From Psychrobacter cibarius (lineage in GTDB: Bacteria; Pseudomonadota; Gammaproteobacteria; Pseudomonadales; Moraxellaceae): DNA of 64,000 nt. Location: NCBI GenBank assembly GCA_030686115.1, contig CP131612.1:496001-560000 (forward strand), written 5' to 3'. The stretch's first letter is position 1. Each line of letters begins with the position of its first letter. A model generated the notes under the pieces. The model searched no databases. It was not told where the DNA came from and was given only the letters and a program-made list of their open reading frames with translations. Shown one piece after another: positions 13,583 through 55,934 of the stretch. Made by a program: the position numbers and the translations under genes.

Positions 13583-13963
<381 letters not shown>

Positions 13964-14041
13964 CTTTTTTATTGTTCGTGATAAAAATGCAGCTAATTTG
14001 AATAAATTTCATATTTTCTGCAAAAAATGCCCTTCTAGGGG

Positions 14042-14084: not shown

Positions 14085-14161
14085 GGCGATGTAGCTCAGC
14101 TGGTTAGAGCGCATGACTCATAATCGTGAGGTCAAGAGTTCAAGTCTCTTCATCGCCACCA
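14085..14161 (+). tRNA. tRNA-Met (CAT), elongator
   Basis: 77 bases including an encoded CCA. The acceptor stem GGCGATG pairs with CATCGCC; the D arm GCTC...GAGC is intact. The anticodon loop is CTCATAA within a 5-bp stem (one G-T pair), and the T loop is TTCAAGT. The sequence matches elongator rather than initiator tRNA, since the first base pair G-C of the acceptor is formed. Confidence 0.96.
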
Positions 14162-50761: not shown

Positions 50762-51100
50762 GCCAGAGACTTTATAATTCTTGCACTAGCATCTTAAAAG
50801 GCATTCTTACATTGATTATGTAAGGATGCTTTTTTTGTACTTTTTATTTTATTTTTTGCCTAAAACAAGGCCTTATTATAAGTTTTCAGTTATATAAATA
50901 GACTTATGTAGGTCTTTAATATCCTTTGTTTGCCATATATAACAAATTGTGGTTAATAACCAAACATAATTATTGCAATCACAAAGGTAGGCAAGTATTA
51001 TCCACGTAACTTTCTGTAAGTAAATATTGTGAAGATATTACCTAACCTTTCTAAATTGTCATTTATTGATATATATAACGTAAAGTTTAAAGGATGAATT
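50762..51100. other. Intergenic region upstream of the chemosensory-like cassette
   Basis: 339 AT-rich bases. The first 75 hold the terminator of the efflux gene. The rest should include the promoter of the five-gene cassette, but no clear -35/-10 pair was found. Confidence 0.45.
50801..50836 (+). terminator. Terminator of the efflux pump gene
   Basis: GCATTCTTACAT pairs with ATGTAAGGATGC (one G-T pair) over a 5-base loop, followed by seven T. Confidence 0.92.
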
Positions 51101-51970
51101 ATGAAGCAATTATATAAACTATTGCCAATTGTATTTAGTATAGGACTGTTTGGGTGTAGTAACTCTACCACTCAAGAGAATGTAAATAAGAGTAATGCTA
51201 AAGATAATAAAGATACTTTTGTTAGTAAATTGCCTGATACTGCGCCCACATTAAAGGTTGCGACTACAGGTACGACGCCGCCGTTTTCGTTCCAAGATGA
51301 CTATGGCAATATGCAAGGGATTGACATTGACGTCATTCGAGCTATTGGTGAAGAACAAGGCTTTAAAGTCGAGTTTTACAAAGAAACGTTTCAAAATATG
51401 TTTGATAGTGTGGAATCAGGTAATCGCGATTTGGCATTAGCAGGTATTTCTTATAAAGATGAACGCGCGGCGAAATATGGCCTATCGAAACCTTATTTCT
51501 TTAATCCATCAGCAATTATGTATTCTAACGATAAGTTAAAAATAAGTAGTTTAGAAGACCTAAAAGGCATGCATGTTGGTGGTATGGAAAATGGGAAATC
51601 AGTCGATCAAATAAAAGCAGTTGGCACCTACGGGGAGCTGTCTACCAGAGAGACTGCTTTCTTATTATATGAAGATTTGATGCAGGGGAAGGTTGATGCC
51701 ATTCTCCATGATGCCCCTATTTGGCAGTATACGGCAAAAATCCATCCTGAATATAAGGTCACTATCGTGCCTTATGAAGGCGAAGATGTGCCTGAAGCAC
51801 AGCAAGTGATAATGATGGCAAAGGGCAATAATGAGCTTATTAAAAATGTTAACGAAGGTATTACTAAGCTTAAGACAAAAGGAACGTTCAAGACAATTGA
51901 AGAGCAGTGGTTAGGTGAGAGCATTCCAGCTATCGATAGCACTTCTGCTACTACTCAGCAACTGAACTAA
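51101..51970 (+). CDS. Solute-binding lipoprotein, family 3 (amino-acid type)
   Basis: 289 residues; AAGGATG precedes the ATG. A lipoprotein signal peptide has lipobox LFGC (Cys19), followed by a Ser/Asn/Lys linker to about residue 48. The rest is one family 3 binding domain: LKVATTGTTPPFSFQDDYGNMQGIDIDVI in its opening, then AGISYKDERAAKYGLSKPYFFNPS and DLMQGKVDAILHDAPI, the hinge and second lobe. Such domains usually bind amino acids or small carboxylates. No ABC permease or ATPase is near; instead a sensor kinase starts 12 bases later, so it likely feeds signal to that kinase. Confidence 0.92.
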   Translation: MKQLYKLLPIVFSIGLFGCSNSTTQENVNKSNAKDNKDTFVSKLPDTAPTLKVATTGTTPPFSFQDDYGNMQGIDIDVIRAIGEEQGFKVEFYKETFQNMFDSVESGNRDLALAGISYKDERAAKYGLSKPYFFNPSAIMYSNDKLKISSLEDLKGMHVGGMENGKSVDQIKAVGTYGELSTRETAFLLYEDLMQGKVDAILHDAPIWQYTAKIHPEYKVTIVPYEGEDVPEAQQVIMMAKGNNELIKNVNEGITKLKTKGTFKTIEEQWLGESIPAIDSTSATTQQLN

Positions 51971-51982
51971 GGAATTCTGAAG

Positions 51983-54178
51983 ATGGCAACTACCCCTAAT
52001 GTTGACAATAAGCGCTATCAAAATTTAATTATTTCTATTGCATTGTTTTTATCGCTAATTGGTGCTTTGCTAGCGTTTACCTTTTATACCTCAAGCTTAT
52101 TAGAAAGAAACACGGTATTAATTGATCGAACCAACCAAGTCGCGAATAGTGCACAAGCTGTAATCAAAGATTTATTCGATTTAGATAATAGCTATGGCGA
52201 AGATACAAACTCTCCGCATATTCAGCGTGTTTTAGAGCGTTTGGAACAAGATACGGCACAGATTACCAGCTCAATTTCAGCTCTTGAACAAGGCGGTACT
52301 ATTACCAGCGTTGAAGGCAAAAGCTACGATCTTCCAAAGGTGAATAGTGAGTCTCAAGTTAAAGTTGCGGAAGCTAATCAAGAATGGAGGCTTTTAGAGC
52401 CTAAAATTCAGGCATATCTAAAAGATGCTGATAACGTGATGGTCGACTCTTCAGATAACCTGACTCAAGCGGTTGAACAGGCGAAGACTTCAAGTTTATT
52501 TATTAACGACTCGCTAGACCAGCTTACTGATGAGGTGTTTATAAACGCTGAACGTCAAGCAAACACTATTCGTCTGATTCAGATATTGGGTGTTGCAGCT
52601 ATTTTTGCTTACTTCTTGATATTCGTATTCTTCTTTGTACGTCGTTTGCGTGAGACGGATGCTGAAGCATTTGCCGCTCGTCGCGAGACGCAAGAAATTA
52701 TGGAAACGGTCAGTACCGGTCTATTTTTGCTTGATAAAGACTTAAATATTGGTCAACAGCATTCTCGTGCATTAAATGACATTGTCGGCTCAGACAGATT
52801 GGCAGGGGAAAACTTTACCAATGTCTTGCGCGGTCGTATTTCTGATAAAGATCTGAAAACCACACAGCAATTTATTGAGCAGCTTTACAATCCACGCGTT
52901 AAAGAAAAATTGGTAGATTCTCTGAATCCGCTACATAAAGTGATGCTGCATAATACGTCTGGAGACAAAGCCCAGAACAGTCGCTTCTTAGACTTCAAGT
53001 TCTCGCGCGTTTATGATAACAAAGATATTGCTCGTATTTTGGTCAACGTCAACGATGTATCAGATGCCGTATATTTAGAGCAGCGTCTAGAAAAAGAGCG
53101 CTCGCAAAATGATATGCAGATCGAGATGCTCACCACTATCTTGAATGTAAATCCTAAGATTATTAATGAGTTTATTGATAATACGCAGATGCACATTGAG
53201 AAGATGAACAATATCTTGAAAAATCCTGGTAGCTCTCAATACGAGCTTGAAGGAAAGCTAAAAGCCATCTATCGCGAAATGCATAGCTTAAAAGGTGAGG
53301 CATCTGCGCTAAAACTGCACAGCTTTACTAAAATTGCCTCAGATGCGGAAGACAAACTGCACGCATTGCAAAACCAAGGTCAATTATCTGGTAACGATTT
53401 CTTGCCATTGGCCGTACATTTGGATGACTTGTTAAGCTTATCAAATACCATTGCAACGTTAGGTGAGCGTATCAACCGCTCAGCACCAGCAGCCGCAAAA
53501 TCTAGCGTATCAGCAGCAATTTCTGAAAGTCAGTCAATTGCCAGATCGGCTACCAGCTCAAGTAATGGCATGGCCACTGATGGTGGTTTGGACATCAATT
53601 TGGGTAGTGATGCAGACGATGCAAATAATGATCACTTGGTTTTTTATAAAGACTTTGCAGATGATATCGCAACTAGGCAAGGCAAACAGGTCACGCTCAA
53701 AAGCCTGACATTAACCCAAGCCAATATACCAGAGCATCTGGTAAAGCCGATTAAAGAGATTAGCATTCAGCTACTACGTAATGCTGTGGTACATGGTATT
53801 GAAGCGCCAAGTGTTCGTCAGACGACGGGTAAAGCAGTCGTCGGTACGATTGATTTAGAGGTGCAAGACAGTGGCGCAGATGTGACGCTGATTGTGCAAG
53901 ATGATGGTCAAGGTATTGATTATGACAGCATTCGTGCCAAGTTAAGCAGTGATGGTCGTTTTAGTACGGAAGAAGCTAGCCAGCTCAGTCAGGGCGACTT
54001 GCTCAAGCAACTATTTGTATCGGGTTTCTCTACCCGAGACGACGCGGATGAAGATGGCGGACGCGGTGTCGGTCTCGATATTATCAAAGCAAAAGTAAAA
54101 GAGTATGGTGGCAAGCTGAATGTAAACAGCGAATTTGGTCAGATGACACGGTTTGTGGTTACTTTACCCAAAGCTTAA
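51983..54178 (+). CDS. Membrane CheA-like histidine kinase with Hpt domain
   Basis: 731 residues. Two membrane segments (about residues 13-36 and 206-228) flank a helical periplasmic region of about 165 residues. A PAS-like domain follows (METVSTGLFLLDKDLNIG). An Hpt domain has MHSLKGEASALKLHSF with phospho-His434. The CheA-type ATPase domain contains LLRNAVVHGIEAP (N box), DDGQGIDYDSI (G1) and GGRGVGLDIIKAKV (G2). There is no CheW-like P5 domain and no receiver, so it does not look built for MCP arrays. The phosphate should pass to the receiver encoded next. Confidence 0.88.
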   Translation: MATTPNVDNKRYQNLIISIALFLSLIGALLAFTFYTSSLLERNTVLIDRTNQVANSAQAVIKDLFDLDNSYGEDTNSPHIQRVLERLEQDTAQITSSISALEQGGTITSVEGKSYDLPKVNSESQVKVAEANQEWRLLEPKIQAYLKDADNVMVDSSDNLTQAVEQAKTSSLFINDSLDQLTDEVFINAERQANTIRLIQILGVAAIFAYFLIFVFFFVRRLRETDAEAFAARRETQEIMETVSTGLFLLDKDLNIGQQHSRALNDIVGSDRLAGENFTNVLRGRISDKDLKTTQQFIEQLYNPRVKEKLVDSLNPLHKVMLHNTSGDKAQNSRFLDFKFSRVYDNKDIARILVNVNDVSDAVYLEQRLEKERSQNDMQIEMLTTILNVNPKIINEFIDNTQMHIEKMNNILKNPGSSQYELEGKLKAIYREMHSLKGEASALKLHSFTKIASDAEDKLHALQNQGQLSGNDFLPLAVHLDDLLSLSNTIATLGERINRSAPAAAKSSVSAAISESQSIARSATSSSNGMATDGGLDINLGSDADDANNDHLVFYKDFADDIATRQGKQVTLKSLTLTQANIPEHLVKPIKEISIQLLRNAVVHGIEAPSVRQTTGKAVVGTIDLEVQDSGADVTLIVQDDGQGIDYDSIRAKLSSDGRFSTEEASQLSQGDLLKQLFVSGFSTRDDADEDGGRGVGLDIIKAKVKEYGGKLNVNSEFGQMTRFVVTLPKA

Positions 54179-54240
54179 TTAACAACAGTAGGTATATTGT
54201 CAAGGACGACAAACACTTCATTAAAGGTAATAGATCAGTT

Positions 54241-54603
54241 ATGCATAAGTTAATGATTGTTGATGATTCAAATATTATTAGAAATCGTATTCAACGCGCG
54301 TACGATTCAGGGCAGTTTATGCTGGTTGCGACGGCAACCAGTGGTGTTCAAGCCATTGAAAAGTTCAATGTCCATCGTCCTGATGTAATCACTATGGACT
54401 TGACCATGCCACAAATGGACGGGCTTGAATGCATTGAGAAAATCATTGCGATTGACCCTGAAGTACGCATTTTAGTGGTGTCAGCACTGTCTGATAAAGC
54501 CACTGGCATTGAAGCATTGTCGTTGGGTGCCAGCGGATTTTTGTGCAAGCCTTTCTCAGAAGATGAGCTTGTAGAGTCTTTGTATGAGCTAATGCAAGAC
54601 TAA
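54241..54603 (+). CDS. CheY-like single-domain response regulator
   Basis: 120 residues, one receiver domain and nothing else. Acidic pocket VDDSNIIRN (Asp8, Asp9), phospho-acceptor DVITMDLTMPQMDG (Asp53), the Ser of RILVVSALSD, and the conserved lysine in GFLCKPFSEDEL are all present. It should accept phosphate from the Hpt domain of the kinase encoded 62 bases upstream and be reset by the CheX-like proteins downstream. As a stand-alone receiver it must act by binding a partner, which is not visible here. Confidence 0.94.
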   Translation: MHKLMIVDDSNIIRNRIQRAYDSGQFMLVATATSGVQAIEKFNVHRPDVITMDLTMPQMDGLECIEKIIAIDPEVRILVVSALSDKATGIEALSLGASGFLCKPFSEDELVESLYELMQD

Positions 54604-54632
54604 ACCATTCAACGACTTAAGTAGATGTCATT

Positions 54633-55082
54633 ATGAAAGAACAAAAGCTACAGATTTTTTTAAGTATTATTAGTAACTATTTTAATCAGTTTGGGGGCGA
54701 GGAGCTTGTCGCTGACACCCCATATCTGTTAGAGAATAAACAGCCAAAAGTCCATGACTATACGGGTGTGATCGGTATATCGGGTGGACAAAAAGGCGTG
54801 GTGTATTTTTCGGCAACTCGTCAGTTATTGTCCGCTATACTGGATAGCATGGGTGAAACGGATAAAAGCGATGAGAATTATATCGATTTGGCTGGTGAAG
54901 TGGCCAATACCATCGCTGGTAACGCACGTAAAGAGTTTGGCTCAGAGTTCCATATTTCTGTGCCGTTTGTATTTAAAGGCTCTCCACAAAGTATTGTGTT
55001 GCCGAATGATGAGCGTTCTTTTATCATTCCCATCACTTGGAACTCGCAGATAGGCGAGATTGTGGTCTGTTTGCAGGATTAA
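54633..55082 (+). CDS. CheX-like CheY-phosphatase, first copy
   Basis: 149 residues. Fits the CheX/CheC-type fold used to dephosphorylate CheY-P. The helix with the E-x-x-N active-site motif is in LAGEVANTIAGNARKEFG (Glu89, Asn92). It opens with a helix around SIISNYFNQFGGEE, then TGVIGISGGQKGVVYFSA. It lies 29 bases after the receiver gene. The second copy at 55124 has the same length and shares the E-x-x-N helix. Confidence 0.9.
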   Translation: MKEQKLQIFLSIISNYFNQFGGEELVADTPYLLENKQPKVHDYTGVIGISGGQKGVVYFSATRQLLSAILDSMGETDKSDENYIDLAGEVANTIAGNARKEFGSEFHISVPFVFKGSPQSIVLPNDERSFIIPITWNSQIGEIVVCLQD

Positions 55083-55123
55083 CGTTGCTGCCACCGCGTC
55101 ATAAAGATGGATATTAATATATT

Positions 55124-55573
55124 ATGGTTAAAGTAGAAAAATTGGGTGTGTTTCTGAGCTCAATCAATGCATTTTTTGCACAAATTGATGGCTCGGAAGT
55201 GTCCATTGATACCCCTTATTTAAATCATAACAAGAGTGCTGTTGGTTATGATTATAGCGGCGTTATCGAGATATCAGGGCCTATTGAAGGCTGTGTGTAT
55301 GTGAGTGCGCCAAGCGTGATGTTGCGAGAGGTCATAAAAGTGATGGGCGAGCCTGACTCATCGATCACGATGATGAAAGATCTGCTCGGTGAGATGGCCA
55401 ACACTATCTCTGGTAATGCTCGTACTGAGTTTGGCTCAGAGTTTATTATCTCGCCGCCGCATATTGTTGAGAGCGCACCAAGCGTGTCTTATTTGCCAAA
55501 AGATCGCCAAAGTTACGTCACGCCATTTACGTGGCGTGGGTATAAAGCGGTTATTGGTATCTGTATCGCTTAA
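55124..55573 (+). CDS. CheX-like CheY-phosphatase, second copy
   Basis: 149 residues, paralogous to the previous gene: the openings align (LSSINAFFAQIDGSEVSIDTPYLNHN) as do the active helix LLGEMANTISGNARTEFG (Glu90, Asn93) and the ends (SYVTPFTWRGYKAVIGICIA). The two differ in about half of positions, so the duplication is old. They could act as a heterodimer or as phosphatases with different set points. It lies 41 bases downstream of the first copy and ends just before a strong terminator. Confidence 0.9.
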   Translation: MVKVEKLGVFLSSINAFFAQIDGSEVSIDTPYLNHNKSAVGYDYSGVIEISGPIEGCVYVSAPSVMLREVIKVMGEPDSSITMMKDLLGEMANTISGNARTEFGSEFIISPPHIVESAPSVSYLPKDRQSYVTPFTWRGYKAVIGICIA

Positions 55574-55934
55574 TCTACAGCTGCTCATTTATTCAGTATA
55601 AAGAACGACGTTAATGCGTCGTTTTTTTATGCGTTATCATCTACTTAAACAGCATAATAGCGCTAGCAGTCGCTAAGCATTATATGATAAAATACAGCCC
55701 AGCTATTCTTATCACATCGTATTTTTACGTTCAAACGATAGCTCAATTTTTTAAACCAACCCATCAACCAATGACACACACATCATGGCAAAAAATTGCT
55801 GGGTGTTTGGCGACTTGATTAATTTGCAAAAAAGTTAGTGCTGCCACAATGAGCATTAACCGTTAGCAGATGCGTGTCGCTAGATAGGCAGTTTTTGTGA
55901 TGTGGAGGCATAACCCAACCAATAGGAATTTCAC
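55574..55934. other. Intergenic region before rpsB
   Basis: 361 bases: the terminator above, then an AT-rich promoter zone near 55680-55700 (TAAAAT at about 55690) and a leader of some 200 bases. Leaders of rpsB in gammaproteobacteria can bind S2 for autoregulation; the fold here was not resolved. Confidence 0.45.
55604..55628 (+). terminator. Terminator of the chemosensory-like cassette
   Basis: AACGACG and CGTCGTT pair over a 6-base loop, running into seven T. It closes the cassette and marks the boundary with rpsB. Confidence 0.9.

What the first reader, a model, noticed from the sequence alone, without database searches (positions are those of the whole stretch)
51101..55628. Self-contained chemosensory-like phosphorelay: binding lipoprotein, CheA-like kinase, CheY and two CheX
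Five same-strand genes with short gaps end at one strong terminator. The order is a family 3 solute-binding lipoprotein, a membrane kinase with Hpt (His434) and CheA-type ATPase but no CheW-like domain, a lone CheY receiver (Asp53) and two paralogous CheX-like phosphatases that both keep the E-x-x-N motif. No MCP, CheW, CheR, CheB, or flagellar gene lies in the window. The binding protein has no ABC transporter, which suggests it is a sensor subunit. Duplicated phosphatases on one receiver imply tight or two-level reset. Domain calls are established family knowledge; the joint pathway, the ligand (amino-acid-like) and any output (for example twitching motility or second-messenger control) are inference.
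Basis: partly seen in the sequence, partly recalled or inferred. Interest (0 to 1): 0.78.

Follow-up and report, generated by a model that had tools for sequence, protein, structure and literature searches.

The report
Swappable-sensor mini chemosensory phosphorelay
A Psychrobacter gene cluster encodes what looks like a compact chemotaxis-type receptor and kinase in one protein, with its own messenger and off-switches, and relatives appear to exchange its outer sensor parts as a block while the inner wiring stays the same.

Summary
The five genes are real and correctly described: family-3 binding lipoprotein, membrane kinase (Hpt plus CheA-type ATPase), CheY, CheX1, CheX2, then a terminator. 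The kinase is not a CheA: it lacks the dimerisation (P3) and CheW-like (P5) domains that every CheA in a published survey has. It belongs to a separate receptor-kinase family, found in 12 of 369 gammaproteobacterial genomes, each time with CheY and CheX beside it. The binding protein was seen only in Moraxellaceae loci. Among close Psychrobacter relatives the binding protein and the kinase's periplasmic domain differ together as a bounded island while the flanks and most of the signalling core stay nearly identical, good indirect evidence that the two form one sensor. Arg and Asp anchors expected for an amino-acid ligand are invariant; neighbouring pocket positions vary. The genome also holds a Pil-Chp pilus pathway whose MCP shows no ligand-binding domain. 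All 15 kinase-bearing genomes checked keep pilT-family genes, and three MCP-less Psychrobacter also lack CheX and an intact pilT. Best reading: an SBP-gated receptor-kinase relay, probably acting on type IV pili. The pilus step is inferred and its background frequency was not measured. New variant of a known kind.

The parts
51101..51970 (+). Family-3 solute-binding lipoprotein (289 aa, lipobox LFGC), likely sensor subunit; Arg122 and Asp204 invariant
51983..54178 (+). Membrane receptor-kinase (731 aa): TM1, helical periplasmic domain, TM2, conserved unassigned domain, Hpt, disordered linker, CheA-type P4; no P3, no P5 (TM segments read from sequence)
52094..52570 (+). Kinase periplasmic domain, residues 38-196, varying together with the binding protein
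52649..53137 (+). Conserved cytoplasmic domain, residues 223-385, without a Pfam match at E 1 (window segment) or a convincing PDB sequence match
53138..53452 (+). Hpt/P1 domain; His434 codon at 53282-53284
53627..54175 (+). CheA-type P4 ATPase domain, residues 549-731
54241..54603 (+). Stand-alone CheY-type receiver (120 aa), Asp53 codon 54397-54399
54633..55082 (+). CheX1 (149 aa), E89/N92
55124..55573 (+). CheX2 (149 aa), E90/N93, a separate clade from CheX1
55604..55628 (+). Terminator-like hairpin AACGACG-TTAATG-CGTCGTT followed by a T run
   Evidence: sequence; the scanner listed this repeat on the - strand only
50870..52658 (+). Sensor island: best-fit divergent block against Psychrobacter locus L004 (24.7% divergent inside, 1.0% outside)

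Best explanation
The operon is a compact chemosensory-type phosphorelay in which receptor and kinase are one protein. The lipoprotein binds an amino-acid-like solute in the periplasm and docks on the helical periplasmic domain of the kinase dimer. The signal passes through TM2 and the conserved cytoplasmic domain to the P4 ATPase, which phosphorylates His434 of the kinase's Hpt domain. The phosphoryl group goes to Asp53 of the lone CheY, and the two CheX proteins remove it for fast reset. Ligand choice is changed over evolution by exchanging binding protein and periplasmic domain together. The most likely target of CheY-P is the type IV pilus machinery or its Pil-Chp pathway (my estimate for this last step alone about 0.4). 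Shown here: genes, catalytic residues, family, co-variation, operon conservation. Inferred: ligand class, dimer, docking, phosphoryl flow, reset and output.
Confidence: 0.6

Rival explanations
1. The kinase senses its ligand directly through its periplasmic domain, as NarX-type sensors do, and the binding protein is a neighbour without a role in it.
For: Kinases with the other sensor type and no adjacent binding protein have the same CheY-CheX1-CheX2 set (L049, L054, L056, L062, L063, L069); PilJ-type sensor domain in 8 of 18 family members; no relative of the binding protein found by BLAST in the loci read outside Moraxellaceae; adjacency need not mean function.
Against: Co-variation stronger with the farther half of the periplasmic domain than with the binding protein's own leader; binding-protein relatives present in trans with this sensor type and not above 31% in two genomes with the other, though weakly so in Moraxella.
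Confidence: 0.15
2. The relay is as described but its output is not the pilus: for example a Ser/Thr kinase branch, a second messenger, or another target of CheY-P.
For: A receiver-Ser/Thr-kinase gene directly follows the operon in L119 and a PP2C-Ser/Thr-kinase gene faces it in L122; I recognised no pilus gene beside the operon in the loci read, though most neighbours were not domain-scanned; a vc0377 (CheX family) mutation was a secondary mutation in a V. cholerae motility suppressor (PMC8789113, passages).
Against: 9 of 15 genomes checked have only 2-3 CheW-domain places, little room for a flagellar chemotaxis system as well; pilT family over cut-off in all 15 kinase-verified genomes.
Confidence: 0.4
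3. The divergent island reflects diversifying selection on exposed envelope proteins (phage or similar pressure), or plain recombination of linked DNA, rather than tuning of ligand.
For: The island covers exposed parts; linkage alone gives some correlation; 7 of 12 tested pairs gave wider, shifted or other blocks.
Against: Arg122 and Asp204 invariant in 54 of 54 rows while pocket neighbours vary; right edges at residues 182-226, near TM2, in 5 of 12 pairs; leader and MFS end follow little or not at all.
Confidence: 0.2

Closest known systems
CheA (P1-P5) and ChpA of Pil-Chp
   Same: Hpt phosphotransfer domain and CheA-type P4 ATPase in one protein, separate CheY
   Different: No P3 dimerisation and no P5/CheW-like domain; own membrane sensor; no MCP or CheW in the operon (definition from PMC10782961, abstract and passages)
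XylFII-LytS and TorT-TorS (binding protein on a kinase helical domain)
   Same: Binding protein gene beside a kinase with an all-helical periplasmic sensor (PMC8534201 passages; PMC9769921 passages; gene neighbourhood of those two recalled)
   Different: Those kinases have DHp-type cores and other outputs (recalled); here Hpt plus P4, CheY and CheX
GlnH-GlnX-PknG of Corynebacterium and Mycobacterium
   Same: Family-3 lipoprotein binding Asp/Glu, proposed to act on a membrane protein with four-helix bundles (PMC9769921, passages)
   Different: GlnX is no kinase; output is a Ser/Thr kinase
CheX phosphatases with solved structures
   Same: Pfam CheX and E-x-x-N; PDB sequence matches 3iic, 3hm4, 3h2d
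   Different: Two CheX in one operon, forming two clades with the same Moraxellaceae genera
NarX/PilJ-type sensor domains
   Same: PF13675 found in 8 of 18 members of the kinase family
   Different: The window kinase itself gives no PilJ match at E 0.01

Membership tests
CheA histidine kinase | P1/Hpt domain with His | tested here: met
CheA histidine kinase | P4 CheA-type ATPase | tested here: met
CheA histidine kinase | P3 dimerisation domain (PF02895) | tested here: not met
   no match at E 0.01 in 18 of 18 family members; found over cut-off in the genome's own ChpA-type kinase as control; alignment to 1b3q starts at its residue 357, in P4
CheA histidine kinase | P5 CheW-like domain (PF01584) | tested here: not met
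   no match; control kinase positive
Canonical chemosensory gene cluster | MCP and CheW in the same cluster | tested here: not met
   the genome's matches lie near 2.90 Mb, the operon near 0.55 Mb of the same contig
Orthodox two-component histidine kinase | HisKA/DHp domain | tested here: not met
   no HisKA-type match at E 1
CheX phosphatase | Pfam CheX above cut-off and E-x-x-N | tested here: met
CheX phosphatase | CheY-P phosphatase activity | not testable with these tools
   needs assay
Family-3 solute-binding protein | SBP_bac_3 above cut-off, lipobox | tested here: met
SBP-gated sensor kinases (TorT-TorS, XylFII-LytS type) | Helical-bundle periplasmic domain | tested here: inconclusive
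SBP-gated sensor kinases (TorT-TorS, XylFII-LytS type) | Binding-protein gene with the kinase and no ABC transporter beside it | tested here: met
SBP-gated sensor kinases (TorT-TorS, XylFII-LytS type) | Physical binding of the SBP to the kinase | tested here: inconclusive
   fused model too poor
PilJ-type sensor domain PF13675 | Pfam match | tested here: inconclusive
   no match for the window kinase, 8 of 18 family members match

The most novel reading that the evidence does not exclude
A distinct, undescribed class of chemosensory system: a receptor fused to a P1-P4 kinase that steers type IV pili without an MCP-CheW array, in bacteria whose array receptor PilJ has often lost its ligand-binding domain, and that is re-aimed by exchanging a binding-protein-plus-sensor cassette between strains.
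Probability: 0.3. Interest if true: 0.85.

Novelty: new variant of a known kind. Interest (0 to 1): 0.6.

Why it matters
CheA-type kinases are generally coupled to receptors through CheW. Here the same kinase and phosphotransfer modules appear with the sensor built into the kinase and a dedicated off-switch, in a family found in several gammaproteobacterial families. The natural series of differing sensors gives ready-made chimeras for asking how a binding protein drives a helical-sensor kinase. If it acts on pili, it would give Moraxellaceae a ligand-sensing route to surface movement.

Tried and rejected
Fused binding-protein/sensor fold: too poor to read an interface. PAS identity of residues 223-385: no Pfam match at E 1 for the window segment and only a designed protein at E 0.26 in the PDB sequences; I call it unassigned. 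Short PilJ going with CheX: not significant. Ser/Thr kinase neighbours as general output: seen in 2 loci, a lead only. Phylum sample: 2 of 398, the own genome among the two, only 2 candidates scored per genome; a weak estimate of spread. Papers: searches listed none that I recognised as describing this operon; I judged by title, start of abstract and the passages cited, and the library holds open-licence papers only. Rows dropped: 8 fragmentary loci (L007, L012, L013, L039, L042, L058, L067, L070) before the Mantel tests, as well as loci without binding protein, CheX1 or CheX2 (53 rows left, with the window and the nearly identical L002 both counted; 50, which also needed the MFS gene); 4 of 58 binding-protein rows (L007, L012, L013, L058) before the residue counts. 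The pairs were picked by me. The class search scored at most 3 candidates per genome, so 12 of 369 is a lower bound.
Full report
What is there. The window belongs to a Psychrobacter genome (closest named locus P. glacincola BNF20, kinase 100% identical as rounded; genome 3.43 Mb in 2 contigs). Five + strand genes lie between an MFS efflux gene and rpsB-tsf: binding lipoprotein, kinase, CheY, CheX1, CheX2, closed by a hairpin with a T run. The catalytic residues examined are invariant wherever the rows have letters: receiver D8, D9, D53, S81, K103 (69 rows); CheX E and N (67 and 68 rows); kinase H434, K437, G438, N600, D640-D641-G642, G644, G693, G695, G697 (68 of 70 rows, 2 with gaps).

What the kinase is. 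Pfam finds Hpt and HATPase_c above cut-off and nothing else above cut-off. Structure comparison aligns residues 388-492 with CheA P1 and 547-731 with CheA P4 (model mean pLDDT 68); the P1 score is hardly above that of a designed four-helix bundle, so the Hpt call rests on Pfam and the motif. No P3 or P5 is found in it or in 17 relatives, whereas both are found in the genome's own ChpA-type kinase. A survey of CheA sequences states that P1, P3, P4 and P5 are present in all of them (PMC10782961, abstract and passages). So it resembles CheA in its working parts but is not a member. A search with the distant relative in L119 listed 96 proteins; the 77 best (P0121-P0197) carry neither H-kinase_dim nor CheW in the precomputed domain list, 57 of 77 carry PilJ and 64 of 77 Hpt; then the E-value jumps from 5e-64 to 3e-25, where CheA proteins begin (only the candidates sharing most words were scored). 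Between TM2 and Hpt lies a conserved stretch of about 160 residues with no Pfam match for the window segment and no convincing PDB sequence match.

How widespread. With an 18-row alignment, 12 of 369 gammaproteobacterial genomes, the own one included, have matches across sensor and kinase (G404's in two frames). Extra copies occur in G333, G390, G503 and G599. Nearly all other matches in the capped list are confined to the kinase end at about 190 bits or less; one in G424 covers the sensor part only. In all 12 a CheY and a CheX lie next to a kinase copy; one extra copy in G599 (L174) has neither, and those of G390:C21 and G503:C2:1230338 were not looked at. The phylum sample gave 2 of 398, the own genome and G333. 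CheX occurs in 98 of 249 Moraxellaceae genomes and, as listed, 73 of 91 of the genus. CheX1 and CheX2 form two supported clades (96/94 and 100/99) that both hold Psychrobacter, M. oblonga and genera g7, g10 and g15, which fits one old duplication, although the tree does not resolve them as sisters. Two Moraxella loci (L055, L059) keep only CheX2; the more distant Moraxellaceae locus L127 has one CheX. Outside Moraxellaceae the operons read have one CheX, save G333 (L123) with two kinase-CheY-CheX sets and one extra CheX; that extra CheX and the CheX of the second set have Ser where the motif has Asn.

The exchanged sensor. Against locus L004 the flanks and cytoplasmic genes are about 99% identical, but a block from 231 nt before the binding-protein gene to kinase residue 226 is 24.7% divergent. 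In 5 of 12 pairs that I picked the right edge falls at residue 226, 215, 191, 190 or 182; in the other 7 the best block was wider, shifted or elsewhere. Some pairs also differ in the linker and ATPase region: the window and L034 are 44% identical in the linker and 83% in the kinase domain. In four pairs read over the whole 22 kb the lowest three to five 300-nt windows fall in the sensor block. Distances of the binding domain track those of the kinase periplasmic domain (partial r 0.65, p 0.001) and little else (-0.05 to 0.15; kinase domain 0.14, p 0.02; CheX2 0.15, p 0.054). With 50 rows the correlation is 0.62 with the far half of the periplasmic domain, 0.58 with the near half, 0.52 with TM1, 0.20 with the binding protein's own leader, 0.10 with the MFS protein, so it does not simply fall with DNA distance; whether the lower variability of leader and MFS explains part of the contrast was not tested. 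Seven loci (L049, L054, L056, L062, L063, L067, L069) have no adjacent binding protein; in six the sensor is a different type (11-16% identity to the window's) and L067 is truncated. L050, L055 and L059 keep the usual sensor type without an adjacent binding protein, which is against strict pairing in cis. Their genomes encode relatives elsewhere, best 46, 35 and 38% identical; ten neighbouring proteins scanned around these (8, 2) carry no ABC-transporter domain (loci read). In the L049 and L054 genomes, with the other sensor type, nothing exceeds 31%. The contrast is clear for L050 but weak for the two Moraxella genomes, where the next binding proteins reach 34 and 36%. L032, L033, L037, L038 and L052 have two or three tandem binding proteins.

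Ligand. The binding protein aligns with amino-acid binders such as 6h30 (glutamine transporter) and 4zv1 (AncQR). Arg122 and Asp204, which align with the Arg and Asp that hold an amino acid's carboxylate and amine in this family (that role is recalled), are invariant in 54 of 54 rows; neighbours such as 158-165, 203 and 205 vary. An amino-acid-like ligand with changing side-chain choice is the inference.

Output. The genome carries a Pil-Chp-like cluster: two receivers, CheW, a 476-aa MCP, CheR, a 2302-aa ChpA-type kinase and CheB (the Pil-Chp name is by resemblance), and pilT-family genes elsewhere. Its only MCP match has no PilJ-type sensor-domain match. In P. aeruginosa PilJ without its binding domains still allows twitching but not directed movement (PMC10896506, passages). 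All 73 CheX-positive Psychrobacter genomes have an MCP; 3 of 18 CheX-negative ones lack it (Fisher p 0.0067, relatedness ignored). A fourth MCP-less genome, G626, was not in the CheX scan. In the three, pilT is below cut-off (G108), interrupted by a stop (G130) or split between two matches (G210). The pilT family is over cut-off in all 15 kinase-verified genomes checked (11 distant; G056, whose kinase reads in two frames, G101 and G026; own). CheW domains were sought in 15 genomes (14 kinase-verified and G010, known for CheX only): all have them, 14 in a frame of 1450 aa or more as in ChpA and G404 in one of 1101 aa; 9 of 15 have only two or three CheW places. The class background of these genes was not measured, so this is suggestive only. 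Other outputs stay open, among them Ser/Thr kinases, which neighbour the operon in two loci.

Verdict.

Noticed in passing
G000:C1:2902767-2903315 (L001): The only MCP match of the genome is 476 aa with a very short periplasmic loop and no PilJ domain match; most Psychrobacter MCP frames are about 460-525 aa, a minority about 700.
   Followed up: partly
L119:10113-11357; L122:4500-6212: Ser/Thr kinases beside the operon: a receiver-kinase fusion directly downstream in L119 and a PP2C-kinase fusion facing it in L122.
   Followed up: partly
window 53453-53626 (kinase residues 491-548): The linker between Hpt and P4 is predicted disordered and hypervariable (44% identity or less in all but the closest relatives) although its neighbours are conserved.
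   Followed up: no
L121, L124: The kinase reads as two consecutive frames in these loci (sequence error or split gene); neither was joined.
   Followed up: no
G000:C1:456004-458582: Three tandem family-3 binding proteins outside the window.
   Followed up: no
G108, G130, G210: Psychrobacter genomes without an MCP that also lack CheX and an intact-looking pilT.
   Followed up: partly
L168:7266-7997: A DarT1-associated NADAR antitoxin-type protein next to an orphan binding protein.
   Followed up: no
window 13583-13965 and 14085-14161: RNase P RNA and a tRNA-Met gene.
   Followed up: no
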